43,375 nt of DNA, from NCBI RefSeq assembly GCF_014174255.1, contig NZ_JABEQJ010000038.1:1-43375 (forward strand), read 5' to 3'. A program made the position numbers and the translations under genes. Below are positions 21,010 through 39,294 of the stretch, in pieces. Origin of the DNA: Gluconacetobacter sacchari (GTDB lineage: Bacteria; Pseudomonadota; Alphaproteobacteria; Acetobacterales; Acetobacteraceae). Position 1 is the first letter of the stretch; the number at the start of each line of letters is the position of its first letter. The notes below the pieces were generated by a model. It made no database searches. It saw nothing but the letters and a program-made list of their open reading frames with translations, and was not told where the DNA came from.

Positions 21010-21083
21010 GCGGGCGTAGCATAGTGGTAATGCAGTAGCCTTCCAAGCTTCTGAGGAGGGTTCGATTCCCTTCGCCCGCTCCA
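21010..21083 (+). tRNA. tRNA-Gly (UCC), integration site of the island
   Basis: The acceptor stem GCGGGCG/CGCCCGC is perfect, the anticodon loop CTTCCAA gives anticodon TCC, the T loop is TTCGATT and CCA is encoded. The anticodon stem GTAGC/GCTTC contains one T-T mismatch at its second pair. A tyrosine integrase gene starts 232 nt downstream in the same direction, the usual layout of a tRNA-targeted island, so the 3' half of this tRNA is probably the attL copy. Confidence 0.93.
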
Positions 21084-25119: not shown

Positions 25120-25220
25120 CACACATCCAAGTGCCCAGCGGCGAGTGGCGACGTAGCGGAGCATATGGGGGAGCTTGGCTCGCAGGGCTATCCGCAACTG
25201 TCGAGACCGTAGCGAGAGTC

Positions 25221-25817
25221 CTAGCTCGGTTGAATCAAAAGGCCTCGGAACGTGTTTTCGACCAAAGCATCAATGTAAGATTCGTCAATGTCGCGATATG
25301 GAATCGTAAATCGATAATATACCGCCCCAAATAGCATATCCAATACTAGATCAACATCACAGTCTAATCCTATTTCCCCTCGCTGGCATGCCAATTTAAG
25401 AAATTGAATCCCTTCATTACGCCTGGGTTGGATCCAGCGCTCCCAAAAGGCACCAGAGAGTTCTTCGTCCATCTGTGCCATGCCAAGCAAATTGCGGAGG
25501 AGCTGGCGTCGCTTGCCCGAGAGTGCAGTCACCAGTTGAAACAGGGCGTGGCGGAACGTTGCCGTCACAGAACCGAGGTCCTTGTATGAGATTTCTTGCG
25601 AAATGTCCGATAGGAAAGCGTCCATCAAAACAGACGCGGAATTGGGCCAACGGCGATATATCGTCGATTTTGCCGCACCAGAGCGTTGGGCGATGTTTTC
25701 AATCGTGGCATGACCGATGCCATGCTCATAGGCCAATTCAAGCGCAGCTTGCCGAACTAGAACAGAGACCTCAGTCCGACGAGGACGCCCAGATACGCGA
25801 CTGGCCACTATGTCCAC
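25221..25817 (-). CDS. TetR-family regulator of the biosynthetic cluster
   Basis: A 198-aa repressor with a TetR HTH at its start (LAYEHGIGHATIENIAQRSG, AAKSTIYRRWPNSASVLMDA) and a TetR_C-type ligand domain (ALFQLVTALSGKRRQLLRNL, LDMLFGAVYYRFTIPY). The GTG at 25817 is chosen because AGGAGG lies 5 nt upstream; an ATG at 25856 is an alternative but its ribosome site is poor. It is divergent from the FAD enzyme gene that opens the cluster, and two dyads lie in the intergenic region, so it probably controls the cluster and itself. The ligand is presumably the product or an intermediate (inference). Confidence 0.88.
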   Translation of the reverse strand: MDIVASRVSGRPRRTEVSVLVRQAALELAYEHGIGHATIENIAQRSGAAKSTIYRRWPNSASVLMDAFLSDISQEISYKDLGSVTATFRHALFQLVTALSGKRRQLLRNLLGMAQMDEELSGAFWERWIQPRRNEGIQFLKLACQRGEIGLDCDVDLVLDMLFGAVYYRFTIPYRDIDESYIDALVENTFRGLLIQPS

Positions 25818-25829
25818 AACCTCCTCCTG

Positions 25830-25846
25830 ACGGGATGAAATCCCGT
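25830..25846. promoter_or_regulatory. Palindrome in the TetR leader
   Basis: A perfect 7-bp inverted repeat (ACGGGAT-GAA-ATCCCGT) lies 13 nt upstream of the tetR start codon. It may be an autoregulatory site or an mRNA hairpin that affects tetR translation. Confidence 0.45.
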
Positions 25847-25914
25847 GAATGACCAAAATCAGTAGTTTCCAATCTTATGACAAACGGACGTTGCAACCAA
25901 GTCCGTGGTCGGGG

Positions 25915-25943
25915 TTGCCTAGAAACGATACGTCGCGTATCTA
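25915..25943 (+). promoter_or_regulatory. Candidate promoter of the biosynthetic cluster
   Basis: TTGCCT (25915-25920) and TATCTA (25938-25943) are 17 bp apart, 35 nt before the chosen start of the FAD enzyme. The spacer and -10 are covered by a long dyad. Confidence 0.4.
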
Positions 25944-25948
25944 TTCTA
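25920..25948. promoter_or_regulatory. Likely TetR operator
   Basis: A 29-bp dyad centred at 25934. The outer arms TAGAA/TTCTA and inner arms GATACG/CGTATC are perfect, with two unpaired positions between them and TCG at the centre. Its length is typical for TetR-family sites and it overlaps the candidate promoter, so binding would shut off the cluster. Confidence 0.6.
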
Positions 25949-25977
25949 AATCAGATCTCTTGGGCAGCGGGCTGACG

Positions 25978-27255
25978 ATGCAGCATTTCGATTTCGTGAT
26001 TATTGGGGCGGGCCCCGCCGGTCTTGCAGCACGACAGCGCTTGGAAGACGAAGGGTGCTCCGTTGCTCTTATCGACGCCGGTAAGCCTCTCAGTCAACGG
26101 AGTCGAGGCAATGAGAAGGAACTCGCAACCGGATATGGGGGAGCTGGGCTGTTCTCAGATGGAAAATTCTCCTTTTTCCCGTCAGCGACACGCCTCTGGC
26201 AACTTGGTCACCAGGACGCACTGCGCGCCTCCTACGATTGGGTCCAGGCGCTGCTCAAACAGCATGGCCTCGATAGCCCGCCTTATCCTGAGATCGGCCT
26301 AAGTGACGCTGCTGCTCAAGGTCGGTGGGCATTAAAAGAATATCCGTCGAGTTATCTTCCGCTGAGCAGTCGGTTTGAACTAATAACGTCTCTGTTGGCT
26401 GGCAGTCAGTCGGTTTCCTTCGACGAAACAATCGTGGAAGATTTGAATTTTTCGCGTGAATCACAGTTGTTCGGCGTAAGGCTTGTCCAAACGCATGGAA
26501 TTCGTTCGGTGATTACAGCTCGATACGTGATAGTGGCCACAGGAAGGTTTGGTCCCCTGAGCTTTCCAGGCTTGTTCCTCAATAAACATTTCCAAAGACT
26601 GGAAGTCGGATTTCGGATCGAGCAACCTTCTGACCGTGCGTTCTTTGCGAACGTCAAGCAGCTGGATCCGAAGTTCTGCTTCCGCGACGATGCGAAGGCA
26701 CTCGAGTGGCGAACATTCTGCGTATGCCGTGAGGGCACGACTGCCCTCGCTCACGTAAATGGCTTGTGGGCTGTATCCGGCCACTCGGATTGTGCACCCA
26801 CCTGTAATTCCAACGTGGGATTCAACACGCGGATATTGGATGAGGCTGTCGCATCGAGGAATCTGCCGCATTTGACGGGAGCAATGAAGGACAAGGGTTG
26901 CCATTTCAAGGTCCCTCTCCGCGACGTCTTAGCCCATAAAAAGTCGACGCTAGACATATTCCACCGTGTTTACGGTCCTGAGTTGAGTGAAAGCATGATC
27001 GTTGGGCTGCGTCATCTGATAGCTCAATTCCCTTCCATTGATCACGAAACGACGAACTTGATCGGACCTACGCTTGAAGGCGTCGGGTGGTACCCAGTCC
27101 TTGATGACTACCTAAGTCTTCGCGATGTTCCTGCTTGGGTTGCAGGTGATGCGTGCGGTCTGTTTCGTGGAATCGTCGCTGCCCTTATCAGCGGACATTA
27201 CTCTGCGTCGGAGGCCCTCCGTAAGTTCAAGTTAGAAGAAACTATTGCAGCATGA
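25978..27255 (+). CDS. FAD-dependent dehydrogenase (COG2509-like)
   Basis: A 425-aa flavoprotein. The N-terminus is a Rossmann FAD fold (FDFVIIGAGPAGLAARQRLE, GAGPAG at 10-15), followed by the signature GYGGAGLFSDGKFSFF (52-66). This signature is characteristic of the uncharacterised FAD-dependent dehydrogenases of COG2509, relatives of geranylgeranyl-reductase/HI0933-like proteins. A second FAD stretch (VIVATGRFG) and the end GLFRGIVAALISGHYSASEA support this. The ATG at 25978 is used since the fold begins at once; 43 codons upstream are open but unlike the family. Its stop overlaps the Nudix start (ATGA). It probably oxidises or reduces an intermediate of the cluster; the substrate is unknown. 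Confidence 0.75.
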   Translation: MQHFDFVIIGAGPAGLAARQRLEDEGCSVALIDAGKPLSQRSRGNEKELATGYGGAGLFSDGKFSFFPSATRLWQLGHQDALRASYDWVQALLKQHGLDSPPYPEIGLSDAAAQGRWALKEYPSSYLPLSSRFELITSLLAGSQSVSFDETIVEDLNFSRESQLFGVRLVQTHGIRSVITARYVIVATGRFGPLSFPGLFLNKHFQRLEVGFRIEQPSDRAFFANVKQLDPKFCFRDDAKALEWRTFCVCREGTTALAHVNGLWAVSGHSDCAPTCNSNVGFNTRILDEAVASRNLPHLTGAMKDKGCHFKVPLRDVLAHKKSTLDIFHRVYGPELSESMIVGLRHLIAQFPSIDHETTNLIGPTLEGVGWYPVLDDYLSLRDVPAWVAGDACGLFRGIVAALISGHYSASEALRKFKLEETIAA

Positions 27256-27719
27256 GCGTCGAGTTATATCAACGCACCTCAGTTATTGGAGTGGGTGCTA
27301 TAATCCGCAACAATAGAGGTGAGGTATTGCTCGGGCATCGGGTGAAGAGAGGAGAACACGAGACATGGTGCCTTCCTGGCGGTCACGTCGAACCTCACGA
27401 AACCTTTGAACAGACTGCACGCCGCGAAATAGCGGAAGAAACCGGGATAGCCGTCTATTCGGATCTAGACCCTATTATCCTCACAGTGGATACTACGGCC
27501 TCTATTCCGTCTGTTACTTGTGGCGTGGTCGTCACAGTGAGAGACGGCACGAAACCCGTTGTCCGCGAGCCATGCGTATTTGCTTGCTGGCAGTGGATAC
27601 ACCCCAGCCTATTCCCTCGCCCGTTTTTTCCGGCCTCCGAGGCTCTGTTGAATGCTTGGATGGGAAAGCCACCCTTAGTAGGGTGGCACACCTATTTCAT
27701 CAACTTAGAAAAAAGATAG
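27252..27719 (+). CDS. Nudix hydrolase
   Basis: A 155-aa Nudix protein with a complete Nudix box at residues 44-66 (GGHVEPHETFEQTARREIAE followed by ETGI; consensus GX5EX7REUXEEXGU). It would bind Mg or Mn and cleave a nucleoside diphosphate linked to another group. MutT/dCTP-pyrophosphatase-like features (LLGHRVKRGEHETWCLPGG) are seen. The overlap with the FAD gene implies coupled synthesis. In the cluster it could clear an adenylated or nucleotide-linked by-product, or act on a nucleotide substrate; neither can be chosen from sequence. Confidence 0.85.
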   Translation: MSVELYQRTSVIGVGAIIRNNRGEVLLGHRVKRGEHETWCLPGGHVEPHETFEQTARREIAEETGIAVYSDLDPIILTVDTTASIPSVTCGVVVTVRDGTKPVVREPCVFACWQWIHPSLFPRPFFPASEALLNAWMGKPPLVGWHTYFINLEKR

Positions 27720-27887
27720 CCGATATTCGGGCTATATACCATGTCAGGAACTGAGATGGATGGTTAATTTTGTTTAAATTGAAATCGCTCCATTTGTGAG
27801 TGGAGAGCTCGATTCGAAAGCGTACTATGAGAAGTCAGCGCGGTATTTTGTAGCTGCGATGGCATCCGAAATCAGCGAGAGAAATCA

Positions 27888-30800
27888 ATGTTAGTTAATG
27901 GCATGTCGCCAATGGCATATGATGTTCCTATTACGGGCACGAGCGTTCTCTCACTCATCTTAGATTGCGCGGCGACAAACCGTGATTCTATCGCGGTAAT
28001 CCATGGGCGTAATTCGTTAACATATTCCGAGCTCGTGGCTTGCGCCTATTACAATGCAACGAGACTAAAGGAGGTCGGAGTCGCCAAAGGAACCACGCTG
28101 CTTTGCGCGGCTCCTACCGGTGTTCAACTACCCATCTCCTGGCTTAGTTCGATGATGCTTGGGGCAATTTTTATACCCGTGGACCCGGGATGGCCACAGC
28201 ATCGCGTAGAAGAAATCATTTCCACATCAACACCAGCAGCCATCCTAACGACTGGTTCTGAAGAAAGAATCCTGAATTATCTCCATGACGCCAATTTTAT
28301 AAAAATCGAGACTAAGCTCAACGGTGACTCTTCTGAATGGGAGATGGCCGATCTATCAACCGGAGACATCATGTATGGATTTTTTACGTCAGGAACAACA
28401 GGATCTGCAAAGTGCGCGCTGAATATTCACGGGGGCGTCCAGAACAGATTTCAGTATATGACCCGTCGCTTCGGGCACGGACATGTAGCATTCCAAAATA
28501 GCTCTCCATGCTTCGACTCCTCAATATGGCAGCTTCTATGGCCGCTAGCCAGCGGCGGGTCAGTAGTGCTTCCGGACGAGCGACGTGCCGTAGACGTCAT
28601 ATCGACAGTCGCGCTCATAGAAAAACATCGCGCTACCATAACAGATTTCGTTCCGTCTCTCTTTCGGTTGCTCGTAAAATCCCTGAACGTCGGCACAGTC
28701 AAACCCGAGCAATTAACGAGCCTTCGACACATCTTGATCGGTGGCGAGGCTGCAGACGGCACTTCTATACGCGACTTTATGAGGCACGTTCCGAATTGCG
28801 CGCTCGTAAACACCTACGGTCATACTGAGGCTTCGATCGGCATGGTCTTTCACGACATTACCAGGGAAGATCTTGCTAGGATTCCGCTCGGAAGTCCGAT
28901 AGACAACACTTTCGTTTTGGTCGTCGACAAGACGATGGCTCCGGTTCCTGATGGAGAAGTCGGAGAAATCGTGGTTGGTGGCGCATGCGTAGGTCGAGGG
29001 TACTTGGGTCAACCCGAACTCACGTCGCGATGTTTTCTTCCGAATCCCTATGAGGGTACAAAAGGGGAAACAGTGTACCGGACCGGCGACTATGGACGAA
29101 TGAACGGAAAAGGATTGCTCGAATATGTCGGACGTTCCGGTGATCAAATAAAGGTGTTCGGGGTCCGCGTCGAGCTAGAAGATGTGGCTAGCGCGGCCAA
29201 AAGAACGCTTCCGGAGATAGAGCAGGCAATCCCTCTGGTGATTTCTGCGAGCGAAGGAAATGACATCCTGTGCCTCGCATACGTGGGGGAAAAGGAATAT
29301 GAGCCCAGCCTTATGCGTCAAAATCTGTCGTCCTGTCTTCCCCTGACCCACGTGCCGAAGTACTTCCTGCGTCTCGGAGATCTTCCCCTCAGCGATAATG
29401 GCAAGATAGATAAGAAAGTAATCCACGCTATATTCGAATCAAAGCTGAATGCTGTTCGTCAAGATATCGGACACCCGCAGGAGACTTCGGTCCCCGGCAG
29501 AGTCTATAGCTCATTTGCGAGAGTGCTTGGGCGAAGGAAATTTCCAACTGATGCAAACTTTTTCGATATTGGAGGGTCGTCGCTTGACGCGATAAATCTC
29601 GCGATCGACCTTGAACAGTCGACGGGATTTCACCTGGATGTCTCAACAGTATATCGTTACCCCAGCGTGCGGGCACTCGCCGATTACCTCCAAAGAGGGG
29701 GCACTCCGGAAGCACCCGATAATGAAATCACTTTACCTATTTTGGATCATTTCCGAGTCGCCGAGCCCGTGGAGCCAAGGGGGCGACCAAAGACAATCCT
29801 GATAACGGGGGCAACTGGTTTCGTGGGCGCGTCCTGCCTTGCCAACATCCTCCGCGAAACGTCGTATGATGTTTATACTATAGCCCGCGCTGATGATTCT
29901 CTTCACGCCAATGCCCGTGTATGGAAAGAGCTACACCAATTCGAGGTGAATGAGAAATCTGTGGCTTCACGGTTGACGGTAATAAAAGGCGATCTCGCTG
30001 CCGAAAGGTTCGGTTTGGATCATCAAACATTTGAGCAGCTTCTGTCCAATATTGATGAGGTGATCCATTGTGCTTCAGAGGTGAATTTCCTGAAAGAGCC
30101 TGACCTGCTATATCGATCGAACGTTACCGCGACAGAAAAGGTTCTACGATTTTGCGGGATGGTTCAGGCCAAACGCCTCCATCACATATCTTCGCTTGCC
30201 GTAGTTCCATTTCACCCACAGTCGGGCGACTCCCAAATCAAGTACAGCGCGGGTGTCGGCTCCGGCTATGGAGTAACCAAGTACCTCGCAGAGGTCATCG
30301 TCAAGAAAGCAAAAGCACTAGGACTCGAGGCCGAGATCTACCGCCTCGACGATGTCCTTCCCTCCGCGGTCTTTGGCTATCGGAACAAGCGATCGATTTT
30401 CGATATATTCGTGCGCACTTGTCTTAGGGAGGGGGTATACCCCGCTGAAGCAGGGGAAATAAGGTATCTTTCGACGGATCAGGTGTCCGAAATGATCGTG
30501 AATCGCATCGGTCTGACGGACTGGGGCGCGCCGGAAGGCTCTACAATACAGGTAGTATCTCCTATTGCAATAAGTATTGAGCAAATGTTGCTTCACGCCG
30601 CGCAGCGAAGAGGACTACTGCTACGACAGCTACCATATCAAGAGTTTCTCCATGCTCTCGAGGTTTCGTCGCATAGCGACTCGAAGCTACTGAAAACCGT
30701 AATTCCGGAGTACTCGACTGTGGTACGGGGCCGGCGGGTATTTGAAATCACCATGGTGGCCGATCAGCCTGGGAGCAGTGGCAAATGCGCTTTGCCGGTT

Positions 30801-30890
30801 GCAGACGGAGAAGCAATCCGAACTGGTTGCTTCGATCGATTTATTGACGCGGTTGTCAACGACATCACCGCGGTATCTTCTCAGGAGTAA
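27888..30890 (+). CDS. NRPS-like adenylation-carrier-reductase (A-T-R) enzyme
   Basis: A 1000-aa single-module enzyme. The adenylation domain (about 20-510) has FFTSGTTGSAK (165-175), YGHTEAS (310-316), YRTGDYG (397-403) and NGKIDKK with the A10 Lys near 506. The carrier domain (about 535-605) has FFDIGGSSLDA, with the phosphopantetheine Ser at 565. The terminal reductase (about 635-960) has TGATGFVG (640-647) and the Tyr-Lys pair in YGVTK (794/798). It lacks a condensation domain. The logic is: activate a carboxylic acid, tether it, and release it reductively as aldehyde or alcohol. By-eye pocket residues are D-S-W-D-L-G-T-I, a code I do not recognise; the acidic residue at the 278-equivalent argues against an acidic substrate and for a basic or amide one. 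A 168-nt gap precedes it; ribosome site weak. Confidence 0.9.
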   Translation: MLVNGMSPMAYDVPITGTSVLSLILDCAATNRDSIAVIHGRNSLTYSELVACAYYNATRLKEVGVAKGTTLLCAAPTGVQLPISWLSSMMLGAIFIPVDPGWPQHRVEEIISTSTPAAILTTGSEERILNYLHDANFIKIETKLNGDSSEWEMADLSTGDIMYGFFTSGTTGSAKCALNIHGGVQNRFQYMTRRFGHGHVAFQNSSPCFDSSIWQLLWPLASGGSVVLPDERRAVDVISTVALIEKHRATITDFVPSLFRLLVKSLNVGTVKPEQLTSLRHILIGGEAADGTSIRDFMRHVPNCALVNTYGHTEASIGMVFHDITREDLARIPLGSPIDNTFVLVVDKTMAPVPDGEVGEIVVGGACVGRGYLGQPELTSRCFLPNPYEGTKGETVYRTGDYGRMNGKGLLEYVGRSGDQIKVFGVRVELEDVASAAKRTLPEIEQAIPLVISASEGNDILCLAYVGEKEYEPSLMRQNLSSCLPLTHVPKYFLRLGDLPLSDNGKIDKKVIHAIFESKLNAVRQDIGHPQETSVPGRVYSSFARVLGRRKFPTDANFFDIGGSSLDAINLAIDLEQSTGFHLDVSTVYRYPSVRALADYLQRGGTPEAPDNEITLPILDHFRVAEPVEPRGRPKTILITGATGFVGASCLANILRETSYDVYTIARADDSLHANARVWKELHQFEVNEKSVASRLTVIKGDLAAERFGLDHQTFEQLLSNIDEVIHCASEVNFLKEPDLLYRSNVTATEKVLRFCGMVQAKRLHHISSLAVVPFHPQSGDSQIKYSAGVGSGYGVTKYLAEVIVKKAKALGLEAEIYRLDDVLPSAVFGYRNKRSIFDIFVRTCLREGVYPAEAGEIRYLSTDQVSEMIVNRIGLTDWGAPEGSTIQVVSPIAISIEQMLLHAAQRRGLLLRQLPYQEFLHALEVSSHSDSKLLKTVIPEYSTVVRGRRVFEITMVADQPGSSGKCALPVADGEAIRTGCFDRFIDAVVNDITAVSSQE

Positions 30891-30895
30891 TATGT

Positions 30896-32206
30896 ATGTT
30901 TAATGATAGATATCGTAAATCGAGAGAACAATTCAAGCGCGGCCTTCGCACTCTTCCTGGGGGGGTCAGTTCGCCTGGAAGAGCTTTTAGCGATGTCGTG
31001 ACCCCTCCGATTTTTGTAAGTTCCGCCCGGGGGAGTCGCTTCACCGATGAAGACGGCAACAGTTACGTGGATTTTGTGCTCGGTCTCGGCCCTGTGATCC
31101 TCGGGCACGGGCATCCAGAAGTGGTAAGAGCAATCTCGGATCAGGCTAGCAAGGGTACGGTCTATGGTATGCCGACTACAATAGAGTACGATCTTGCTGA
31201 TGAAATTATTGCGGCGTCGGAAGTGATCGACCTCGTTCGCTTTATGTGCAGCGGGACCGAGGCAGTGATGACCGCCTTTCGTTTAGCGCGTGCTGCAACC
31301 GGACGGGAGCGTATCGTAAAGTTCCGTGGAGGGTACCATGGTCACTCGGACGTTGCCATTGCACAGGCAACGAAGCCACACATGCTTTCCATCGACGGCG
31401 AAAATATCCGGAGCGGGCTGGCGACAAGTGAGAAGCAAGACGTAATTATATCAGAATACAATGACAGCGACGCAATTAAGACGCTAGTCGATGCTCATGG
31501 TGACGAGATTGCTGCGATAATTGTTGAGCCGGTGGCGACGAATATGGGGTTGGTGCCGGGGACAGGTGAGTTCCTTAGAACTCTGCGCAGTCTAACCTCT
31601 GATCGCGGAATCGTGTTGATCTTCGACGAAGTTGTCTCGGGATTTCGCTTTAGATACGGGCCTGTGGCCGATCAAATCGGCATTCTACCGGACTTGATAA
31701 CGTTCGGTAAGATCGTGGGCGGCGGCCTGCCAATCGGTGCTCTCGGGGGAAAGGCCGAAATCATGGAGTTGTTGGTCCGCCGAGGGAGTGTCTTTCAGGG
31801 AGGCACGTTTGCTGGTAGTCCACTGGCTATGGCTGCAGGGCTGGCGCAGCTTAGAGTCTTGCGGGATACGGACGCCTATGCTCATCTCGACCATCTTGGA
31901 AAGATCCTTTGTCATTCGTTAATAAATGAGTTCCGTGAACGGAATCTTCCGTTTGGGGCTCAACGCTATGGATCTTTGGTTAGTCCTATATTGCAGGTTG
32001 CCAAGGAATCCCTTCGTGATTATTCAGACGTTGGCGGTCAAGACGCAAAGTTATTTGGTCGAGTACATAAGGAGCTAATGGACCGTGGCTTTGCGATCCC
32101 TCCTTCGATTGAGGAACCGCTTTTTCTTTCGGTGGTCCACGAAGAACATCAGGTTAAGGGACTGGCTTCAGCTTACGCCGATGCGGCGTTTTCTTATTCT
32201 CGTTAA
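30896..32206 (+). CDS. Glutamate-1-semialdehyde aminomutase-like PLP aminotransferase
   Basis: A class III aminotransferase of 436 aa closest in look to glutamate-1-semialdehyde 2,1-aminomutase (HemL). Visible: LPGGVSSPGRAF near the start, FMCSGTEAVMTAFRLARAAT, VKFRGGYHGHSDVAIAQ, the PLP-binding FDEVVSGFRF (Asp 244) and Lys 272 in TFGKIVGGGLPIGALGG. Alphaproteobacteria normally make 5-aminolevulinate by the glycine/succinyl-CoA route and need no HemL, so a role in this cluster is likely. Standing 5 nt after an amino-acid reductase gene, it is well placed to aminate or isomerise the amino-aldehyde made there. AGGAG lies 8 nt before the ATG. Confidence 0.85.
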   Translation: MFNDRYRKSREQFKRGLRTLPGGVSSPGRAFSDVVTPPIFVSSARGSRFTDEDGNSYVDFVLGLGPVILGHGHPEVVRAISDQASKGTVYGMPTTIEYDLADEIIAASEVIDLVRFMCSGTEAVMTAFRLARAATGRERIVKFRGGYHGHSDVAIAQATKPHMLSIDGENIRSGLATSEKQDVIISEYNDSDAIKTLVDAHGDEIAAIIVEPVATNMGLVPGTGEFLRTLRSLTSDRGIVLIFDEVVSGFRFRYGPVADQIGILPDLITFGKIVGGGLPIGALGGKAEIMELLVRRGSVFQGGTFAGSPLAMAAGLAQLRVLRDTDAYAHLDHLGKILCHSLINEFRERNLPFGAQRYGSLVSPILQVAKESLRDYSDVGGQDAKLFGRVHKELMDRGFAIPPSIEEPLFLSVVHEEHQVKGLASAYADAAFSYSR

Positions 32207-32222
32207 GGAAGGACGAAAAATA

Positions 32223-33230
32223 ATGAATTCATCGGAAACGAACGACTTTCTCGCTATCTCGAGAGGCGAGGCTGCGGTCCTAATGGGTGGGGCTTGGCAG
32301 GAAAACTCCTGGTTCCGTCATCTCAGCAAGTTGGTAAAGAAAGGATTCTACGAGGGCGATAACGAGAGCCAACTGCAGCTTCATAGAATCCTAAATTCGA
32401 TCTACCGAGTTCTCACCGTTGTCCCTGACCCGGGAGCTGAGACACTTGAGGGGACTCCATATATAGAGAGCATTAGGTCAACCATTGAGAAGGGTTTCAT
32501 TGATTGGCTGAACGACACGTGTGTTTTAAATGGCATAGTGGTTCCGGGCGAGACGAGCTTTGCGAACTGGTTATGGCAGTTTGTAGAGACTCATCCCGCT
32601 GCTACTCATCAGGCGTATTTTGAGTTCTTGGCTAACCGGGCGACGATCGAGGATCTCCGGTTCTATTTGGTGCAAGAGTCGGCCATTGATGCAAGCACCG
32701 ACGACTTTCTCGCGTCTTTGCAAATCGGGGCTCCAGGTGAAGCAAAAATGGAGATCGCACGGAATTATTGGGATGAGATGGGTGAGGGAGACCCAAATTT
32801 TCTGCATTCCACTTTGTTTTCCGATGCTCTCGGGGCATTTTCAATCAGCAACATGGAAGCCGAGAACGCGCTTACTCTTGAAGCATTGATCTGCGGGAAC
32901 CTTCAGCAAATGGTTGGCCTGCGTAGGAACCTATTTCATATAGGCGTGGGATACTTCGGAGCTACAGAGCAACTCGTGCCAAAGCGCTTCGAAGCGCTGA
33001 AGCGCGGCTGGGAGAGGGTTGGGTTGAATCCGAGCGCGGCAAAGTATCATATGCTGCATATTGAAGTCGACGGCGGCCATTCGGAAGGTTGGTACCAAAA
33101 TGTGGTTGCGCCGCTGTCGAAGCGATCTGAACAAGTTCGGAGGGAAATAACGACGGGCGCATTATACCGCCTTGTCACGTCGCACATTTATCTCGACAAA
33201 CTCCTCCGGGATTTTCCGAGTCAGAATTAA
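32223..33230 (+). CDS. Haem-oxygenase-like diiron oxygenase (HDO)
   Basis: A 335-aa all-helical protein of the haem-oxygenase-like diiron family, which includes the N-oxygenase SznF, UndA and BesC. Candidate iron ligands with family spacing: E152 (YLVQESA), E185 and H195 (NYWDEMGEGDPNFLH, ten apart), E249 (YFGATE), H279, D283 and H286 (HIEVDGGHSEGW; 30 from E249, then 4 and 3). The spacings 10, 30, 4 and 3 equal those I recall for SznF, which uses seven ligands. The N-terminal 110 residues are less conserved. The ATG at 32223 is used since AGGAAGGA precedes it and the longer frame overlaps the PLP gene. Probable reactions are N-oxygenation, or oxidative C-C cleavage, of an amine or amino acid. 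Confidence 0.82.
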   Translation: MNSSETNDFLAISRGEAAVLMGGAWQENSWFRHLSKLVKKGFYEGDNESQLQLHRILNSIYRVLTVVPDPGAETLEGTPYIESIRSTIEKGFIDWLNDTCVLNGIVVPGETSFANWLWQFVETHPAATHQAYFEFLANRATIEDLRFYLVQESAIDASTDDFLASLQIGAPGEAKMEIARNYWDEMGEGDPNFLHSTLFSDALGAFSISNMEAENALTLEALICGNLQQMVGLRRNLFHIGVGYFGATEQLVPKRFEALKRGWERVGLNPSAAKYHMLHIEVDGGHSEGWYQNVVAPLSKRSEQVRREITTGALYRLVTSHIYLDKLLRDFPSQN

Positions 33231-33423
33231 GGTATTGCTCTGTCGGTTGACCACTTGAGGGGAGGCTTCGGGTTTTCCCTCTTGCGGTATTGAGCGGGCG
33301 GTCGGCGCGGCGTTCGATCGAGGAGCTCGTGGAAATGTTGAACCGGTTATAGGTCGAGGCCTCCTCGGCGATGATCTCTGGCGCTCGGGAAGGGCTTTGA
33401 AGCCTCGCGATTGGAGTCGCTTC

Positions 33424-34692
33424 GTGAAAAAAAAGTATGCGATCATTGTTGACCCTTATTCTAGCGGTAGCCTTCTAGCGCCGGAGTTCGTTCGGCGAGG
33501 TTTTGATTGCGTTGCCGTTCATTCGCAACCTTTGCGGATTCCGGACAATGGGGGGCGGCCCAATGGCTCCTTTTTTTTCGCGGAGCAGTATCTAGGAGCT
33601 CAGGGAGTTGAGGCACTTGGTGCGGAACTCCTACGCCTAGGCCAGCCGGTTGCTGTGGTTGCGGGGACGGAGAGCGGCGTAATTCTGTCCGACCAACTCT
33701 CCGAGTATCTAAATCTACCTGGGAACGACAGGATGTCGTCGCTAGCGCGGCGTGATAAGTTCTTAATGCACGAAGCTGTAAAGATGTCCGGCCTGGCAAG
33801 TGTCGATCAATGCGTCGTACGTACCACCTCCGAAGCTCTCAAGTGGCTCGGAATGACGGGGCACGATCAGGTGGTGTCTAAGCCTCGCTCTTCGGCGGGG
33901 TCAGACAATGTGAGGCTTTGTCGTTCTCCCGGGGAATTGGAAGCCAGCGTCGATACAATATTGAGGAGCATGAATTACGTCGGAGAAAAAAATCACGACG
34001 CTCTTTTGCAAGAATATATTCCTGGAACGGAATATGTCGTGGATACGATAAGCAGCAACGGTCGCCATCTTACGATTAATTTGTGCTGCTACACAAAGAG
34101 CATAGTCAATGGCGCTTTCTTATATCGAGAGACGCGCTTTCTTCCTCCGACGGGGGAGCTAGCGGAGAAGCTCATCAGGTATAATGATGCTGTTCTTGAT
34201 GTTCTTGGAATTGTAACGGGTCCGGCTCATAGCGAGATTATATTGTCGGGTGAGGGCTCTCCTATTCTGGTGGAGGTTGGTGCCCGCTTGCATGGCGGCG
34301 TTACCGGTCCACAGGTGGTGCGTCGCTGCAGTTCACTCGACCCGTTTGACGTGCTCGTCGACGCCTACGTAGATAACGATGGGTTTCGAGCTGCGGCTAA
34401 TGAAGGCAATCGCTTTATCAGGCATGCGACTGCCTATTGCTTTGCAAACCAAACAGAAGGGATCGTTACCGGCTTTCCCTCCAGGAACAGGTTGATGTGT
34501 CTTGCGTCATTCTTCGACTTTAAGGCTAATGTATCGGTTGGCGACAAAATCTCAAAGACAGTCGACCTCTATAGTTCTCCCGGTTGGATCGTGCTCTGTC
34601 ATCATGATGCTAAGCAACTGGCGTCAGACTTAGAGGAGGTCAAGAGGCTCGAGGCGGAAGGTTCAATCGTGGGCGTCCTCAGGGAGCCATAG
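33424..34692 (+). CDS. ATP-grasp ligase 1 (L-amino-acid ligase type)
   Basis: A carboxylate-amine ligase of 422 aa. After an N-terminal pre-ATP-grasp domain (YAIIVDPYSSGSLLAPEFVR) come the ATP-grasp motifs: VVSKPRSSAGSDNVRL (ATP-binding Lys and loop), LLQEYIPGTEYVVDTIS, and the metal/phosphate region HSEIILSGEGSPILVEVGA followed by RLHGG. This resembles BacD-like dipeptide ligases and BtrJ-like enzymes that join amino acids through an acyl phosphate. The GTG at 33424 is preferred because GGAG lies 7 nt upstream; a TTG at 33397 is also possible. The 193-nt gap after the HDO gene is GC-richer than its surroundings and shows no gene. Confidence 0.85.
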   Translation: MKKKYAIIVDPYSSGSLLAPEFVRRGFDCVAVHSQPLRIPDNGGRPNGSFFFAEQYLGAQGVEALGAELLRLGQPVAVVAGTESGVILSDQLSEYLNLPGNDRMSSLARRDKFLMHEAVKMSGLASVDQCVVRTTSEALKWLGMTGHDQVVSKPRSSAGSDNVRLCRSPGELEASVDTILRSMNYVGEKNHDALLQEYIPGTEYVVDTISSNGRHLTINLCCYTKSIVNGAFLYRETRFLPPTGELAEKLIRYNDAVLDVLGIVTGPAHSEIILSGEGSPILVEVGARLHGGVTGPQVVRRCSSLDPFDVLVDAYVDNDGFRAAANEGNRFIRHATAYCFANQTEGIVTGFPSRNRLMCLASFFDFKANVSVGDKISKTVDLYSSPGWIVLCHHDAKQLASDLEEVKRLEAEGSIVGVLREP

Positions 34693-34699
34693 AATGAGG

Positions 34700-34721
34700 C
34701 GGGCACTATACCGAGTGCCCG
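34700..34721 (+). terminator. Hairpin after ATP-grasp 1
   Basis: A perfect 8-bp stem (CGGGCACT/AGTGCCCG) with a 6-nt loop starts 8 nt after the stop codon. No T-run follows. It may reduce read-through to the exporter gene or protect the mRNA end. Confidence 0.35.
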
Positions 34722-34865
34722 ATAGGTGAGCGACCACCTGTCCCACGTCGGGCTTCACGTGTGCGCTAAATAGATTTGCAGAGTCTCCGGTTGAATTAAG
34801 CATGAGGCAACAAGTTGGGCTTGGAGAACGAGTTGATCGAGCGCGCAGGTCCAGTTGAACGTGGC

Positions 34866-36065
34866 ATGTCGCTAGAACAAAGGAAAAACGAACGCATTTT
34901 GTTGACGTCGACAATTGTGTCCTGCATTGGTAGCGGCGCGAGTTCGATCCTGATCGGAAAATTGCTTTACGAATTGACTGGATCTGTCGGTGCATTTGGT
35001 ACCCTGATCTTTGTCGATTTCGTTCTAGCGATGGTCGTGAATTTGGTGGGCGGAGGGTGGATAGATCGAGCAAATGCAAAAGCCATTCTTTGCGGAAATG
35101 AGTTAGCCCGCGGTTGTGTTCTACTGATTATAGGGTGGCTTCTATGGCTTAACGTGAAATATTGGATGCTTGTGATGTTGCTGTTGTACACCCTGCGTGT
35201 CGGGCAACACTTGAGTAAGCTATCTATGTTTTCGCTGCTGCCACGCTGTATACCTCCATCGTCGCTTGCTAGCTTTACTGCTCGAAACTCAGGTGCCATG
35301 CAAGGCGCACTTTTAGTGGGGGCCACTTTCGTCGGTTTTGCATTGGTAGGGATGTCATATGCTCCGGTGATCGTGTTCGACGCTCTCACGTTCTTTGTTT
35401 CAGCTTTCCTACTGGCAAGGCTGACGGGCATTGATGTCAAGCCACGGTTGCCGAGAGTCGCGTTCCGGTCCATAATTGAGGATTGGATGCGATTCCGCCG
35501 CGAGTTTTTCCGCGACCCACGTTTGGCGGTATTTCTAGTACTTGCCGCGGAAGTTCCGATTTGTGTTGCCCTGAGTAATCTCTGGTTAGCGCCGCTCGTA
35601 TTCGTTAGATTTAACGATAATCCAATATATTTGTCGGTCTTCGAAGGTTCTTTCTCTGTGGGCGCAATTACAGTTTTTTTCTTTAGAAACTATTTGGGTA
35701 GAGACGAGGCGGGGTATGTATTCATGTTATTGCAAGCAATTTCAATAATATTGTTGGGATTCTGTTGGTCTCCTGCGTTTGCAATTTTAGGTTTTGTCGC
35801 GCTGGGAGTCGGTCTTGCTTCCTCGAATGTATATTTCTCAGTTCGCCTGCAGAGTTGGAACCATAAGGGTGATTATGGAAAAATAATGGGATACTCATCG
35901 GTTATGAATCTTGCGGTCGCACTGGCGATTTTGCCGGTATTCTCGTTTGTGACGGACCAATCTCTCGGGGTTTCGATTGTAATGTTCGGAGTGTTGGTAT
36001 TGTCCGTAACTGCAATGCTGTTCTTAAAGGGCGGTACTAATGGGAAAGGGACCATAACGACGTGA
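34866..36065 (+). CDS. MFS exporter
   Basis: A membrane protein of 399 aa with about twelve hydrophobic helices (for example LTSTIVSCIGSGASSILIGK, MLVMLLLYTLRVGQHLSKLS, AILGFVALGVGLASSNVYFS). Its layout is that of the MFS_3/EntS-like drug and siderophore exporters. The position inside the cluster makes export of, or self-protection against, the product its likely role. The ATG at 34866 is used; in-frame TTG codons at 34815 and 34833 are possible, the latter with GGAG 7 nt before it. The last codons overlap the start of a 37-codon ORF (GTGA). Confidence 0.85.
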   Translation: MSLEQRKNERILLTSTIVSCIGSGASSILIGKLLYELTGSVGAFGTLIFVDFVLAMVVNLVGGGWIDRANAKAILCGNELARGCVLLIIGWLLWLNVKYWMLVMLLLYTLRVGQHLSKLSMFSLLPRCIPPSSLASFTARNSGAMQGALLVGATFVGFALVGMSYAPVIVFDALTFFVSAFLLARLTGIDVKPRLPRVAFRSIIEDWMRFRREFFRDPRLAVFLVLAAEVPICVALSNLWLAPLVFVRFNDNPIYLSVFEGSFSVGAITVFFFRNYLGRDEAGYVFMLLQAISIILLGFCWSPAFAILGFVALGVGLASSNVYFSVRLQSWNHKGDYGKIMGYSSVMNLAVALAILPVFSFVTDQSLGVSIVMFGVLVLSVTAMLFLKGGTNGKGTITT

Positions 36066-36175
36066 GAACTTTCATTCAATCGTCGGAACATCTCTTTACT
36101 AGGGTTCACTCGCTGCATGTGCGAGCCCTTCGCTTGCTGGATCAGGGATTCGATAATAAGGAAGTTACATTGTGA
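36062..36175 (+). CDS. Small coupled ORF (37 aa) of unknown function
   Basis: A GTG overlapping the exporter stop (GTGA) opens a 37-codon frame whose TGA in turn overlaps the GTG start of the next ligase (TTGTGA). It starts VRTFIQSSEHLFTRVHSLHV and ends LLDQGFDNKEVTL. It has no Cys, and the middle could form an amphipathic basic helix. The double overlap is what one expects of a translated, stoichiometry-coupled gene, but such a frame can also arise by chance. It could be a precursor or carrier peptide for the ATP-grasp enzymes, a small partner protein, or merely a leader for ligase 2. I know of no family for it. Confidence 0.4.
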   Translation: MRTFIQSSEHLFTRVHSLHVRALRLLDQGFDNKEVTL

Positions 36176-37380
36176 CTGAGCGAAATGCCGATTCCAACAC
36201 CATTGTGATTTTTGGTGGACGTGGCCACCTGCTTGAGCGCGCGGCAGGGCTAGGCTTGAAGACCATTCTCGTAGAGGAGCCCTCGGAGATGCAATCCGAA
36301 TGGTTTGGTCTTGCATCTAAAACATTGCTGCTACCCTATAAACGGTCCGACGATTATATCGGTTGTCTGGCGGCTCTCCATGAGCGAGACCCCCTTCTCG
36401 CGATGATTTCCGTGAACGAAATCGGCCTTTCGGCCGCTGCTGCTGCGTCTGAAGCGCTGGATCTGCCACACCTCTCGATGGAAGGCATTAGATGCATAAG
36501 GGATAAGCACCTTTTTCGGCAAGCATTGCAGGGCGACCTGGGGGTCCGCGCTGCTGCAGTGTCTAACCCCGATGACGTTGTCGAGTTCGGCGAACAAAAC
36601 GGCTGGCCTCTAGTGCTGAAGCCCCGGCAGGGTACCGGAAGCACAGGCGTAAGAAGAATTGCCAGCAGTGAAGATTGCGTTCAATTGGAACTAGCGGACG
36701 AATCAGGATATTTAGTGGAAGAATTTTTGTTTGGTCGAGAACTATCTGTCGAATCATTTAGCTTTGGTGGGCGACACTTAATCGTTGCGATAAATGAAGA
36801 GACGAATGGAGGGGGGAGTATACAGAACGAGTTTCTGGAAATTGCACATCAACTTCCGGCGTGTCTAACCGAGCGTGAAGTATCTGCGGTTCATGATGTC
36901 GTAATAAAGATGCTTGATAAGGTGAATATATCTGACGGTGCGTCGCACACGGAAGTTATACTTACGCACGGAGGGCCTCGAATTGTAGAAACCCACGCTC
37001 GCATCGGTGGAGACCATATAACAGATATGATCTATGCGCTGTCAGGCTTGGACCTCGTGCGTCTCTCTGTTGGGTGGGCCGCGAAAAAAATAGCACCGCT
37101 TGAGGTCCCTCCGCAGATGCACGGTGGCGCCGCAATTCGATACTTTACTGCGGCTCCTGGGAAAGTGGTATCTGTTGGGATGTCCGCTCCCTGGCGTTAT
37201 TATCCAGGGGTGATTGACCTGCAACTCACGGCGACTCCTGGCAGCGTAGTTGGTCCGACTGCGAAGTCTAGTGACAGGCTAGGTTATGTCATGGCTGTGG
37301 GACAGAACTCATCCGTCGCAGCGGAGACATGCAAACGTGTTGTCGAGGCCATAGAAATCAAAACTATTCCTCTATCTTAA
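36172..37380 (+). CDS. ATP-grasp ligase 2 (L-amino-acid ligase type)
   Basis: The second carboxylate-amine ligase, 402 aa. The pre-ATP-grasp domain starts IVIFGGRGHLLERAAGLGLK; a typical SVNEIGLSAAAAASEALDLP follows. The ATP-grasp core has PLVLKPRQGTGSTGVRRIAS, YLVEEFLFGRELSVESFSFG and the metal site GASHTEVILTHGGPRIVETH followed by ARIGGDHI. It is clearly different from ligase 1, so the product may contain two amide bonds made by separate enzymes. The GTG start has AAGGAAG about 8 nt upstream and overlaps the stop of the small ORF. Family relatives make dipeptides or add amino acids to unusual acids; the substrates here are unknown. Confidence 0.85.
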   Translation: MTERNADSNTIVIFGGRGHLLERAAGLGLKTILVEEPSEMQSEWFGLASKTLLLPYKRSDDYIGCLAALHERDPLLAMISVNEIGLSAAAAASEALDLPHLSMEGIRCIRDKHLFRQALQGDLGVRAAAVSNPDDVVEFGEQNGWPLVLKPRQGTGSTGVRRIASSEDCVQLELADESGYLVEEFLFGRELSVESFSFGGRHLIVAINEETNGGGSIQNEFLEIAHQLPACLTEREVSAVHDVVIKMLDKVNISDGASHTEVILTHGGPRIVETHARIGGDHITDMIYALSGLDLVRLSVGWAAKKIAPLEVPPQMHGGAAIRYFTAAPGKVVSVGMSAPWRYYPGVIDLQLTATPGSVVGPTAKSSDRLGYVMAVGQNSSVAAETCKRVVEAIEIKTIPLS

Positions 37381-37971
37381 TGGCTCAGTGTGCTAATTGT
37401 TTCTGGCGATCGTCTTGAGCGCTGGCGGGTTGACGTGATGCGCGTGGTTGACATGCCAATCTGGTGCCGGATGGCCCTTCAATGGAACCATCCGACTTGA
37501 GCCGCCCGACTATGAGCGCGTCCGTCTCTCGCCGGACGGTTGTGGCAATGTCCTTGCATGACATATTGCCTCCTTTAGCGGGAGTTTTTGCTACTGGAGC
37601 CGGGCACTCTGGAAATTCCGGCCAAATGGATCCGAAGAGGGGCGCGCGTCACATGCTCTCGACATTTTCGATGGCTCGGCCGGATGAAGAAAGTTTGTCT
37701 AATCAGTTCGGATCGGCAAAATTGTCAGTATCGAGTTAAAGTGCTATAAGGCGCTGTCACGTTGCGTGACAATCTGACGACACCGCACTGGAGACGAACT
37801 ACAATAAAACGATTTGACTAGAGCAACTCCTGTCCGGCAAGGCGGTATGGAAGATAATTGGCCACTCGGCGCCAATTGCGGAGTAGGGACGACGGTGGTG
37901 CCGTGCACGGTTTCCACTCGATTGGTAAAGCACTTAAGAAACCGTCCGTAGGACGCCCGAATGGACATGAT
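37381..37971. other. 591-nt gap inside the cluster
   Basis: No gene is supported. Open frames exist (for example 37464-37739) but lack a ribosome site, family likeness and sensible composition. The right half holds a perfect palindrome at 37755-37771. The gap suggests that the decarboxylase gene has its own promoter. Confidence 0.5.
37755..37771. promoter_or_regulatory. Palindrome upstream of the decarboxylase gene
   Basis: TGTCACG-TTG-CGTGACA is a perfect 7-bp inverted repeat about 200 nt before the decarboxylase start. It differs from the dyads near tetR, so another regulator may act here. No promoter boxes are clear around it. Confidence 0.4.
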
Positions 37972-39294
37972 ATGGAAGCCTTTAATTATCATCAGGGTGA
38001 ATTATACTGCGAAGAATGTCGTGTTGATGACATTTTGAAGGAAGTTGGGTCTCCTGTATTCATCTATTCAAAAAAATCATATGTGGAGCGTCTGGCCGCA
38101 ATTCGTGAAGCGTTCGACGTGGTCGACCCGCTGATTTGCTTTTCAGTAAAGAGCTGCCCGAATCTCCATTTGCTTCGTGTTCTACATGAGCAGGGGGCTG
38201 GTATGGACGTCGTCAGTGGTGGTGAGTTGTATCGTGCTCTTAGTGCTGGTTCACCGGCGTCAAATATCGTATTTGCTGGTGTTGGCAAGTCACGGCTCGA
38301 ACTCGAGATGGCAATTGAAGCCAAGCCTTTTTTGATTAACGTTGAGTCCGAACAGGAATTAGAACGGCTATACGAGATTTGTCTGGCACGTGAAGAGAGT
38401 ATTTCTGTAGGAATTCGTGTGAACCTCGATGTTGCGGATCCTAATACTCCGGAAAAGACGGCGACTGGTGGCCGGACTAGTAAATTTGGCGTTCCGCTCT
38501 TCGGGGTGGTTGAGCTTTTTAAGAAATATCGCGATAGAAAATTTATAAATTTAACTGCATTACATGTTCACCTTGGCTCACCGATTACGTCGGCATTGCC
38601 TTATCTTCAAGCTATAGGTAAGCTCGACTCTCTTGTCGGTGAGATCCGATCCCAGGGGTGTTCGATACAAGTATTGGATATTGGAGGCGGGTTCCCAACG
38701 GAGCCAGATTCCTCGGCAAATCGCAAGAATTTGGCTGTCCTGGCTAAGGAAATCTGTAGTCGGATCAAGCCATTAACAGAGTCCGGAATTAGAATCGTTA
38801 TTGAACCAGGGCGATCCGTGAGTGCAGATAGCGGCATTCTGGTTAGCCGGGTAGAGTATATCAAGCAAGGATGGGATAAAAAGATCATTGTTCTCGATGC
38901 GGGAATGAATGTGCTGATTAGACCAACGCTCTATGGATCCAAGCATTTTATTTGGCCATCAATTTTTCAAGACTTTTCAGGTCCGTGGACTGAGGTTGCG
39001 AAGTTAAATGGCGATACCAATAGTGAGCAACCTGATCCAGTCGATATTGTTGGTCCGATCTGTGAGTCCGGAGACTTTCTCGCGCTCAATTACCGGTGCG
39101 AGTTGCCACCTGAAGGCGGCTATATGGCCGTATTTTCGTCAGGTGCTTATGGGATGTCGATGGCTAGCCAATATAACTCGCGCCCCAGACCGGCGGAAGT
39201 ACTCGTAGACGGGGGTACGTTTAAAGTGATCCGCCGCCGGGAGGCGTATGAAGACCTTGTGAAACATGAAATCGACGACACCGATATACCATGA
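37972..39294 (+). CDS. Diaminopimelate decarboxylase-like PLP enzyme (LysA type)
   Basis: A fold-type III PLP decarboxylase of 440 aa. The start at 37972 gives the typical LysA opening (FNYHQGELYCEECRVDDILK). Motifs: PLP Lys 60 in CFSVKSCPN, MDVVSGGELYRAL, LHVHLGSPI (His 198-200), LDIGGGFP (236-242), IEPGRSVSADSG (277-288), LDAGMNVLIRPTLYGSKH (308-325) and CESGD with Cys 364. The last two motifs are those of true DAP decarboxylases. The usual HxGSQ is HLGSP here. In the cluster it could decarboxylate a DAP-, lysine- or ornithine-like unit, or a ligase product, on the D-centre; alternatively it could be a resistant spare LysA. The open frame extends to 37858 with unlike residues. Confidence 0.88.
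   Translation: MEAFNYHQGELYCEECRVDDILKEVGSPVFIYSKKSYVERLAAIREAFDVVDPLICFSVKSCPNLHLLRVLHEQGAGMDVVSGGELYRALSAGSPASNIVFAGVGKSRLELEMAIEAKPFLINVESEQELERLYEICLAREESISVGIRVNLDVADPNTPEKTATGGRTSKFGVPLFGVVELFKKYRDRKFINLTALHVHLGSPITSALPYLQAIGKLDSLVGEIRSQGCSIQVLDIGGGFPTEPDSSANRKNLAVLAKEICSRIKPLTESGIRIVIEPGRSVSADSGILVSRVEYIKQGWDKKIIVLDAGMNVLIRPTLYGSKHFIWPSIFQDFSGPWTEVAKLNGDTNSEQPDPVDIVGPICESGDFLALNYRCELPPEGGYMAVFSSGAYGMSMASQYNSRPRPAEVLVDGGTFKVIRRREAYEDLVKHEIDDTDIP

What the first reader, a model, noticed from the sequence alone, without database searches (positions are those of the whole stretch)
25221..39294. Possibly undescribed biosynthetic cluster on a tRNA-Gly island
The gene set is TetR, COG2509-like FAD enzyme, Nudix, A-T-reductase NRPS-like enzyme, HemL-like PLP enzyme, diiron HDO, two ATP-grasp ligases, MFS, a small ORF and a LysA-like decarboxylase. 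It does not match any characterised pathway I know. The parts make chemical sense together: reductive release to an amino-aldehyde, amination or isomerisation, N-oxidation, ligation to amino acids, and export. A small modified di- or tripeptide-like product, perhaps an antimetabolite or metal binder, is inferred.
Basis: partly seen in the sequence, partly recalled or inferred. Interest (0 to 1): 0.92.

Follow-up and report, generated by a model that had tools for sequence, protein, structure and literature searches.

The report
Lysine-based small-molecule biosynthesis cluster
An intact set of genes on a foreign-looking stretch of a bacterial chromosome probably takes the amino acid lysine, oxidises its side-chain nitrogen, turns lysine or a derivative into a reactive aldehyde-derived amine, and joins the pieces into a small exported molecule; a decayed copy of its core sits in a distant bacterium.

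Summary
The set is more than a chance neighbourhood: a Caballeronia symbiont MAG (L095) has decayed pieces of LysA, ATR, HemL, HDO and GRASP1 in one row, the only such case among 80 HDO loci. An ATR-HemL pair recurs in an unnamed alphaproteobacterium (L153); the three HemLs form one supported clade. The HDO is of HrmI/BelK type, a family that nitrates L-lysine (model TM 0.91 to HrmI). LysA passes the DAP-decarboxylase cut-off. ATR's specificity code recurs in Tistrella and L153 beside relatives of lysine halogenases (BesD/HalD). Inferred: LysA supplies lysine, HDO oxidises the ε-amine, ATR gives an α-amino aldehyde, HemL moves or adds an amine, two ATP-grasp enzymes attach amino acids, MFS exports. 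Product, order and activity are untested. FAD-Nudix may be a separate module; the island's right end is off the contig. New variant of a known kind, moderate-high interest.

The parts
21010..21083 (+). tRNA-Gly(tcc), likely left insertion point of the island
   Evidence: ARAGORN; no attR-like copy found in the window
21315..23091 (+). tyrosine integrase split over two ORFs (21315-22346, 22336-23091); described only
   Evidence: Arm-DNA-bind_3, Phage_int_M, and Phage_integrase domain split 2-105 / 122-170 of 172
25221..25856 (-). TetR-family regulator
   Evidence: TetR_N + TetR_C_11
25920..25948 (.). 13-nt inverted repeat (85% complementary) between TetR and FAD, candidate operator (inference)
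25978..27255 (+). FAD-dependent oxidoreductase; possibly a separate module with the Nudix gene
   Evidence: PF01266; 51% identical to a Streptomyces scopuliridis plasmid protein
27252..27719 (+). Nudix hydrolase, overlaps FAD by 4 bases
   Evidence: PF00293; 48% to the Nudix beside the S. scopuliridis FAD
27888..30890 (+). ATR: adenylation - carrier - thioester-reductase (1000 aa), no condensation domain
   Evidence: AMP-binding, PP-binding, NAD_binding_4; carrier GGSS, reductase Y-x3-K, DNGKID; code DSWDLGTIG
30896..32206 (+). HemL-like class III PLP enzyme of a specialised subfamily
   Evidence: 460 bits to NF000818 (cut-off 398), 426 to TIGR00713 (cut-off 527); clade with Caballeronia and G1460 copies 95/95
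32223..33230 (+). HDO: HrmI/BelK-type diiron N-oxygenase
   Evidence: PF14518; HrmI E 1.8e-57; model pLDDT 89, TM 0.91 to HrmI 9nh9
33397..34692 (+). GRASP1: ATP-grasp ligase, PRK07206/DdaF-like
   Evidence: 336 bits to NF005543 (cut-off 302); L-amino acid ligase 30vh E 7.4e-58
34815..36065 (+). MFS transporter, presumed exporter
   Evidence: MFS_1
36172..37380 (+). GRASP2: ATP-grasp L-amino acid ligase with LAL_C2 domain
   Evidence: PF13535 + PF18603; BL00235 3vot E 7.6e-14
37972..39294 (+). LysA: diaminopimelate-decarboxylase-type enzyme (second copy in this genome)
   Evidence: 385.6 bits to TIGR01048 (cut-off 297.9); another copy at G000:C29, 39% identical

Best explanation
A lysine-based biosynthetic cluster. 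LysA supplies L-lysine. The HrmI-type HDO oxidises a lysine ε-amine (to N6-hydroxylysine and on to 6-nitronorleucine). ATR adenylates lysine or that oxidised lysine, holds it on its carrier domain and releases it by NAD(P)H reduction as an α-amino aldehyde. The specialised HemL-like enzyme then works on the aldehyde, either moving the amine (1-amino-2-ketone) or adding one (1,2-diamine). GRASP1 and GRASP2 form amide bonds to one or two amino acids, and the MFS protein exports the product under TetR control. Shown by sequence: enzyme families, intact motifs, co-linearity with the Caballeronia remnant, the ATR-HemL pairing. Inferred: lysine as ATR substrate, nitro as end state, order of steps, role of HemL (mutase or transaminase), the peptide nature of the product. 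FAD and Nudix are ancillary or separate.
For: HDO: best solved relative HrmI; the model matches four HrmI entries at TM 0.89-0.91, and no other entry of the 50 rows shown exceeds 0.75 (FlcD; SznF, next by E-value, 0.68). E152, E185, H195, H279, D283, H286 are the same in 29 of 29 aligned rows, i.e. the window and 28 of the 80 loci. HrmI and BelK oxidise L-lysine's side-chain amine to nitro (passages of PMC10764440 and PMC13108848). Lysine supply: LysA is above the curated cut-off although the genome has another lysA; 41 of 80 HDO loci hold a DapF-type gene, which in bel/hrm could supply lysine. Unit: in L095, pieces of LysA, ATR, HemL, HDO and GRASP1 lie in one row; its HDO pieces are 58% identical, the other 79 loci 29-45%. 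ATR-HemL pairing in G1460 with 49% HemL identity; the three HemLs are one clade, 95/95. ATR code: identical in the window, Tistrella and G1460, one conservative change in G982; Tistrella and G1460 have a BesD/HalD-type gene next to ATR, and all 8 solved relatives of the G1460 one are lysine halogenases, lysine hydroxylases or Halogenase B/D (the Tistrella one was not searched there).
Against: Only 1 of 80 HDO loci has the set, and it is broken. TetR, FAD, Nudix and MFS had no match on that contig at E 0.01, and GRASP2 matched only where GRASP1 does. The first Caballeronia HemL piece is nearly as close to G982's presumed housekeeping HemL (50.3%) as to the window's (51.7%), though the tree groups it with the window. 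HrmI binds lysine through its free α-amine and carboxylate, so the HDO may act on a separate lysine that never enters ATR. HemL keeps the arginine and glutamate that in true GSAM hold the substrate carboxylate (recalled roles), which fits a glutamate-like chain as well. The A-domain reading is by motif position, its mapping and any reference code are recalled, and the ATRs compared were picked for similarity. LysA is not contiguous with the others (591-base gap) and the Caballeronia LysA piece is only 55-60 residues.
Confidence: 0.5

Rival explanations
1. Two substrates: the HDO nitrates one free lysine that becomes a building block, while ATR-HemL converts a different lysine or other diamino acid into an amine cap, and the ATP-grasp enzymes join the two. 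(Overlaps the best explanation; it differs in the order of steps.)
For: HrmI anchors free lysine by its α-amine and carboxylate; the ATR code with D278 is shared with clusters that gave no HDO match in the stretch fetched; two ligases are present.
Against: No data on order.
Confidence: 0.25
2. ATR activates glutamate and, with HemL, forms glutamate-1-semialdehyde and then 5-aminolevulinate or 4,5-diaminovalerate, a tRNA-free C5 route feeding a peptide.
For: HemL passes the HemL subfamily cut-off; R in SSPGR, K in TFGK and E in PPSIEE are kept.
Against: The three cluster HemLs share changes against five of five presumed housekeeping HemLs (V28G, S63G, W64L/F, S89V, S160K, Y300F, F391H) and form their own clade; the enzyme misses the TIGR00713 equivalog cut-off; the companion enzyme in L153 is lysine-halogenase-like.
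Confidence: 0.1
3. A mosaic of independent modules (FAD-Nudix; ATR-HemL-HDO-GRASP1; MFS-GRASP2; LysA) collected on one island without a single shared product.
For: FAD and Nudix occur as a pair without the rest in S. scopuliridis; gaps of 168 bases before ATR and 591 before LysA; the core row was found in only one other genome.
Against: A LysA piece also lies directly before ATR in Caballeronia; all genes from FAD on are on one strand.
Confidence: 0.15
4. A metallophore (siderophore-like) pathway.
For: N-hydroxylated lysine is a common metal ligand (recalled); ATR plus HemL-like enzyme resembles MxcG/MxcL of the siderophore myxochelin (MxcL role: passages of PMC3870968).
Against: No aryl-acid gene, condensation domain or siderophore receptor among the 10 island proteins scanned; the HDO family is known for nitro products.
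Confidence: 0.05

Closest known systems
Belactosin / hormaomycin amino-acid cassette (BelK-BelL-BelM, HrmI-HrmJ-HrmT)
   Same: HDO of the same family (35-36% identity, TM 0.89-0.91 to HrmI); a lysine-supply gene in the cluster; belactosin also uses ATP-grasp ligation (PMC10764440, PMC11427300, passages seen)
   Different: No BelL/HrmJ-type 2OG-Fe enzyme among the 10 island proteins scanned; LysA instead of DapF; adds ATR and HemL
Mangotoxin mbo operon (MboA-E)
   Same: One HDO plus two amino-acid ligases making a small peptide (PMC13185094, section 8 read)
   Different: MboA makes an alkyne on a finished tripeptide; it needs the reductase MboB, and the operon has the deiminase MboE, neither found here; no ATR or HemL
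Myxochelin MxcG / MxcL
   Same: Reductive release by an R domain followed by a class III PLP enzyme; MxcG is the best NCBIfam match of ATR (388 bits, cut-off 2300)
   Different: No condensation domain, no catechol acid; lysine-type companions
Tistrella / G982 / Embleya ATR-AKR clusters and G1460 ATR-HemL-HalD cluster (this work, no description found)
   Same: ATR with the same or nearly the same code; G1460 shares the HemL subfamily
   Different: AKR and no HemL match in the fetched stretches of the first three; lysine-halogenase-like enzyme in place of HDO in Tistrella and G1460
Dapdiamide synthase DdaF / L-amino acid ligases
   Same: GRASP1 matches DdaF (170 bits) and 30vh
   Different: Far below the DdaF equivalog cut-off of 840; different cluster

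Membership tests
HrmI/BelK lysine N-oxygenase | Sequence and fold closest to HrmI among solved HDOs | tested here: met
   E 1.8e-57 versus 5e-4 for the next solved sequence; TM 0.91 versus at most 0.75 for any other entry of the 50 rows shown
HrmI/BelK lysine N-oxygenase | Three His and three carboxylate ligands in the HDO pattern | tested here: met
   E152, E185, H195, H279, D283, H286 in 29 of 29 rows; the assignment by spacing to SznF is recalled
HrmI/BelK lysine N-oxygenase | Oxidises L-lysine to 6-nitronorleucine | not testable with these tools
   needs an assay
Belactosin/hormaomycin nitrocyclopropane cassette | Adjacent BelL/HrmJ 2OG-Fe enzyme | tested here: not met
   no 2OG-Fe family in any of the 10 island proteins scanned; 52 of 80 HDO loci have a BelL-type match
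Mangotoxin (mbo) | HDO with redox partner MboB (flavin + Fe2S2) and deiminase MboE | tested here: not met
   no such families among the 10 island proteins; the HDO is HrmI-type
Myxochelin-type NRPS | C-A-T-R architecture (recalled) | tested here: not met
   A-T-R only
Glutamate-1-semialdehyde aminomutase (HemL) | TIGR00713 equivalog cut-off | tested here: not met
   426 bits, cut-off 527.3; NF000818 subfamily cut-off is passed, 460 against 398; W64L and other shared changes
Diaminopimelate decarboxylase (LysA) | TIGR01048 cut-off and PLP-Lys, EPGR, CESGD motifs | tested here: met
   385.6 bits, cut-off 297.9; motifs
BesC fragmentase | NF042919 cut-off | tested here: not met
   23 bits, cut-off 500
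tRNA-borne genomic island | Integrase next to tRNA and flanking repeat | tested here: inconclusive
   integrase present but split; no second att copy in the window, contig ends

The most novel reading that the evidence does not exclude
ATR plus this HemL subfamily is a reusable 'aminoaldehyde mutase' cassette that turns lysine-type amino acids into 1-amino-2-ketones or 1,2-diamines. Different lineages decorate it with different lysine-tailoring enzymes (nitration here, halogenation in G1460). In this cluster it yields a peptide with a nitroalkyl amino-ketone, which could even close to a ring through its nitronate carbon. This would be a new way to make warheads of small antimetabolite peptides.
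Probability: 0.25. Interest if true: 0.78.

Novelty: new variant of a known kind. Interest (0 to 1): 0.62.

Why it matters
It links a lysine-nitrating-type HDO, a stand-alone amino-acid reductase and a HemL-type enzyme with peptide ligases; none of the titles and abstract starts listed by my paper searches describes that combination, though subscription papers, preprints and MIBiG were not searchable. If the HemL subfamily acts on free α-amino aldehydes other than GSA, that would be a natural-product use of a haem-pathway fold worth testing. The intact copy gives a concrete, assayable six- to eight-gene pathway, and the G1460, Tistrella, G982 and Embleya clusters are ready comparators.

Tried and rejected
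Viral contigs: HDO gave no stretch, ATR gave 4 pattern matches, none a relative. Plasmids: HDO matched 49 of 72,556 records, all under 60% identity. Searches for intact clusters: ATR at E<=1e-100 in 1 of 395 genomes of the order (the own one) and 2 of 398 of the phylum (own, G982); at 1e-90 in 4 of 385 of the class (own, G1332, G1422, G1460; G1422's contig has the length of Tistrella pTM3) and 1 of 78 of G982's class. HDO at E<=0.001 in 9 of 60 relatives, outside the window's own gene 28-36% identical; at 1e-40 in 6 of 398 of the family of the Caballeronia MAG, 30-41% identical; at 1e-25 in 4 of 58 of its genus, only the MAG itself with 58-59% pieces. L019 (Actinoplanes aureus) has matches to HDO, ATR, HemL and GRASP2 types, but at 28-38% with several generic A domains; I judged it another cluster. 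BesC-type fragmentation was rejected on score. A defence role for FAD-Nudix: only a Nudix match of 39 bits to a candidate model in PADLOC, none for FAD. att-site search negative. Promoter/terminator scan: 19 promoter-like sites against 12.7 expected and 18 terminator-like against 15.1, not informative. Literature searches with combined cluster terms returned none or nothing matching in what was listed (15 of 34 and 5 of 5 listed). I could not confirm from the passages seen that 'Acor symbiont' is a leaf-nodule symbiont.


Full report
Observation. The window is a complete contig, G000:C38, 43375 bases. G+C is 0.47-0.55 in the 14 windows 25001-39000, against 0.64-0.73 in 22 of the 25 windows before. 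The stretch holds, in order, TetR(-), FAD enzyme, Nudix, ATR, HemL-like, HDO, GRASP1, MFS, GRASP2 and LysA. Start corrections and the doubtful small ORF are given under the observation check. ATR-HemL are 5 bases apart and HemL-HDO 16. Codon-based scores of the ten genes exceed shuffles by z 2.3-8.7; the small ORF also reaches 2.3 but has no codon-position bias. A 13-nt inverted repeat, 25920-25948, lies between TetR and FAD.

What the HDO is. Against solved sequences the HDO matches HrmI at E 1.8e-57; the next is 5e-4, and BesC 0.003. An AlphaFold2 model from 29 aligned rows (window plus 28 of the 80 loci below; pLDDT 89.1, pTM 0.88) matches four HrmI entries at TM 0.89-0.91; SznF comes next by E-value (0.68), and the highest other TM among the 50 rows shown is 0.75, FlcD. 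Six metal-ligand positions (by spacing to SznF, recalled) are the same in 29 of 29 rows. Of these 80, 52 have a BelL-type match at E<=1e-6 (49 within 1.5 kb of the HDO) and 41 a DapF-type one, as in the known nitrocyclopropane cassette; 3 have a LysA-type match, one of them L095. The window shows no such 2OG-Fe partner. In a tree of 31 rows the window HDO groups with the Caballeronia piece (100/99) on a long branch inside the HrmI-like family; HDOs with and without a BelL neighbour are mixed in that tree.

Is it one pathway? Of the 80 HDO loci, one, L095 from the MAG 'uncultured Caballeronia sp. isolate Acor symbiont', holds the others too: LysA piece (60 residues, 38%), ATR (32-35%), HemL (54% and 40% pieces), HDO (58%, two frames), GRASP1 (34% and 45%, two frames), in that order. 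The frames are broken, so this copy is decaying. TetR, FAD, Nudix and MFS had no match there at E 0.01; GRASP2 matched only at the GRASP1 piece. L019 also touches four of the query types, but at 28-38% and with generic A domains. A bacterium of another class thus once held the same core (the window's genome shares its class with Tistrella). Close to the host it is absent: ATR at E<=1e-100 was found only in the own genome among 395 of the order, which include 12 other genomes of the same genus.

A wider ATR family. ATR relatives at 33-36% occur in Tistrella (L016; also G1332, G1422), G982 (L114) and G1460 (L153), and at 31-32% in an Embleya record (L154). Read by motif position (mapping recalled from GrsA/EntF), the specificity residues are DSWDLGTIG in the window, Tistrella and G1460, DSWDIGTIG in G982 and DSWDVGAIG in Embleya; two other A-T-R hits, Nocardia and Azospirillum, read DVWDFILVS and DPWGLGLID. 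These ATRs were picked as best matches, so a shared code partly reflects that. The neighbour that can use the aldehyde differs. Tistrella has an aldo/keto reductase that is 64% identical to one beside G982's ATR and 62% to one beside Embleya's; the window, Caballeronia and G1460 have HemL. Tistrella and G1460 also carry a BesD/HalD-type enzyme (44.5% to each other). All 8 solved relatives of the G1460 one are lysine halogenases, lysine hydroxylases or Halogenase B/D (the Tistrella one was not searched there). Against the BesD equivalog they score 190 and 226 bits, under its cut-off of 450, so their exact reaction is open. G1460 has a transporter of the Pfam LysE family between HemL and ATR; its best NCBIfam matches are other amino-acid exporters, below cut-off, so it says little about lysine.

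HemL. The window enzyme is 49% identical to the G1460 one (400 bits) and 37-39% to five presumed housekeeping HemLs. A tree puts window, G1460 and the first Caballeronia piece in one clade (95/95), apart from those five; that piece fills only a third of the columns, and by plain identity it is nearly as close to G982's HemL (50.3%) as to the window's (51.7%). Positions identical in all five but changed in all three cluster copies include V28G, S63G, W64L/F, S89V, S160K, Y300F and F391H. The PLP lysine, the SPGR arginine and the IEE glutamate stay in the window enzyme. I read this as an enzyme that still works on an α-amino aldehyde but with another side chain. By precedent, MxcL is hypothesised to transaminate the aldehyde of the myxochelin intermediate (passages of PMC3870968).

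Mechanism. LysA (above its curated cut-off; a second copy, since another lies at C29) gives lysine; HDO oxidises the ε-amine; ATR makes the aldehyde; HemL moves or adds an amine; the two ligases add amino acids; MFS exports. The families and motifs are shown; substrates, order and product are inferred. Whether HDO acts before ATR, or on a separate lysine, is open: HrmI holds the free α-amine and carboxylate of lysine, and D278 in ATR would suit an unoxidised side-chain amine (inference).

Compared with known systems. Belactosin/hormaomycin share the HDO type and lysine supply but have BelL/HrmJ, not found here. Mangotoxin shares one HDO plus two ligases (section 8 of PMC13185094 read) but with other HDO chemistry, a reductase and a deiminase. 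Myxochelin shares reductive release plus a class III PLP enzyme. None combines all three. The ten paper searches made (listings only, 15 of 378 and 15 of 34 shown) listed no description of this cluster; MIBiG was not available. I file it as a new variant of a known kind.

FAD-Nudix. The pair is 51% and 48% identical to neighbours on a Streptomyces scopuliridis plasmid, beside prs, hpt, HAD and MFS genes, with no match to the other window proteins in the 31 kb fetched. Sixteen Rhizobium plasmid records carry an FAD relative at about 34-39%. Its part in this pathway is unproven.

Noticed in passing
L016 (Tistrella mobilis pTM3, 848000-884000): Cluster: ATR, aldo/keto reductase, HalD-type enzyme, desaturase with a weak match to guanitoxin GntB (46 bits, cut-off 380), and a GRASP1-like ligase; 92-97% identical proteins in G1332.
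   Followed up: partly
L153 (G1460:C1:2314001-2334000): ATR-LysE-HemL with HalD and PPTase genes in an unnamed alphaproteobacterium, a sister use of the ATR-HemL pair.
   Followed up: partly
L114 (G982:C107): ATR beside an aldo/keto reductase, an argininosuccinate-synthase-like protein (below cut-off) and, by eye only, two sulfotransferase-like ORFs and an ABC transporter, in a 2-Mb genome; cut by the contig end.
   Followed up: partly
L012 (Agrobacterium vitis pRvVAT039a) and L013 (Streptomyces sp. NBC_01216 plasmid): Belactosin-like runs of HDO, 2OG-Fe, DapF and molybdopterin-oxidoreductase genes on plasmids.
   Followed up: no
L017 (Streptomyces scopuliridis plasmid, 100545-131798): FAD-Nudix-HAD-MFS next to prs, hpt and a type II GAPDH: looks like a nucleotide-type biosynthesis cluster.
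   Followed up: no
L015 (Tistrella mobilis pTM3, 763057-787929): HDO (32%) with a PALP enzyme, an HMGL-like enzyme, an ATP-grasp ligase and two MFS transporters.
   Followed up: partly
G000:C12:52103-52993 (L117): A second HDO (29-30% identical) in the host genome with a TetR gene about 3.5 kb away; function unknown.
   Followed up: no
window 40830-43288: Outer-membrane efflux protein and HlyD-type fusion protein, G+C about 0.53-0.56, close to the contig end; may be on the same island.
   Followed up: partly
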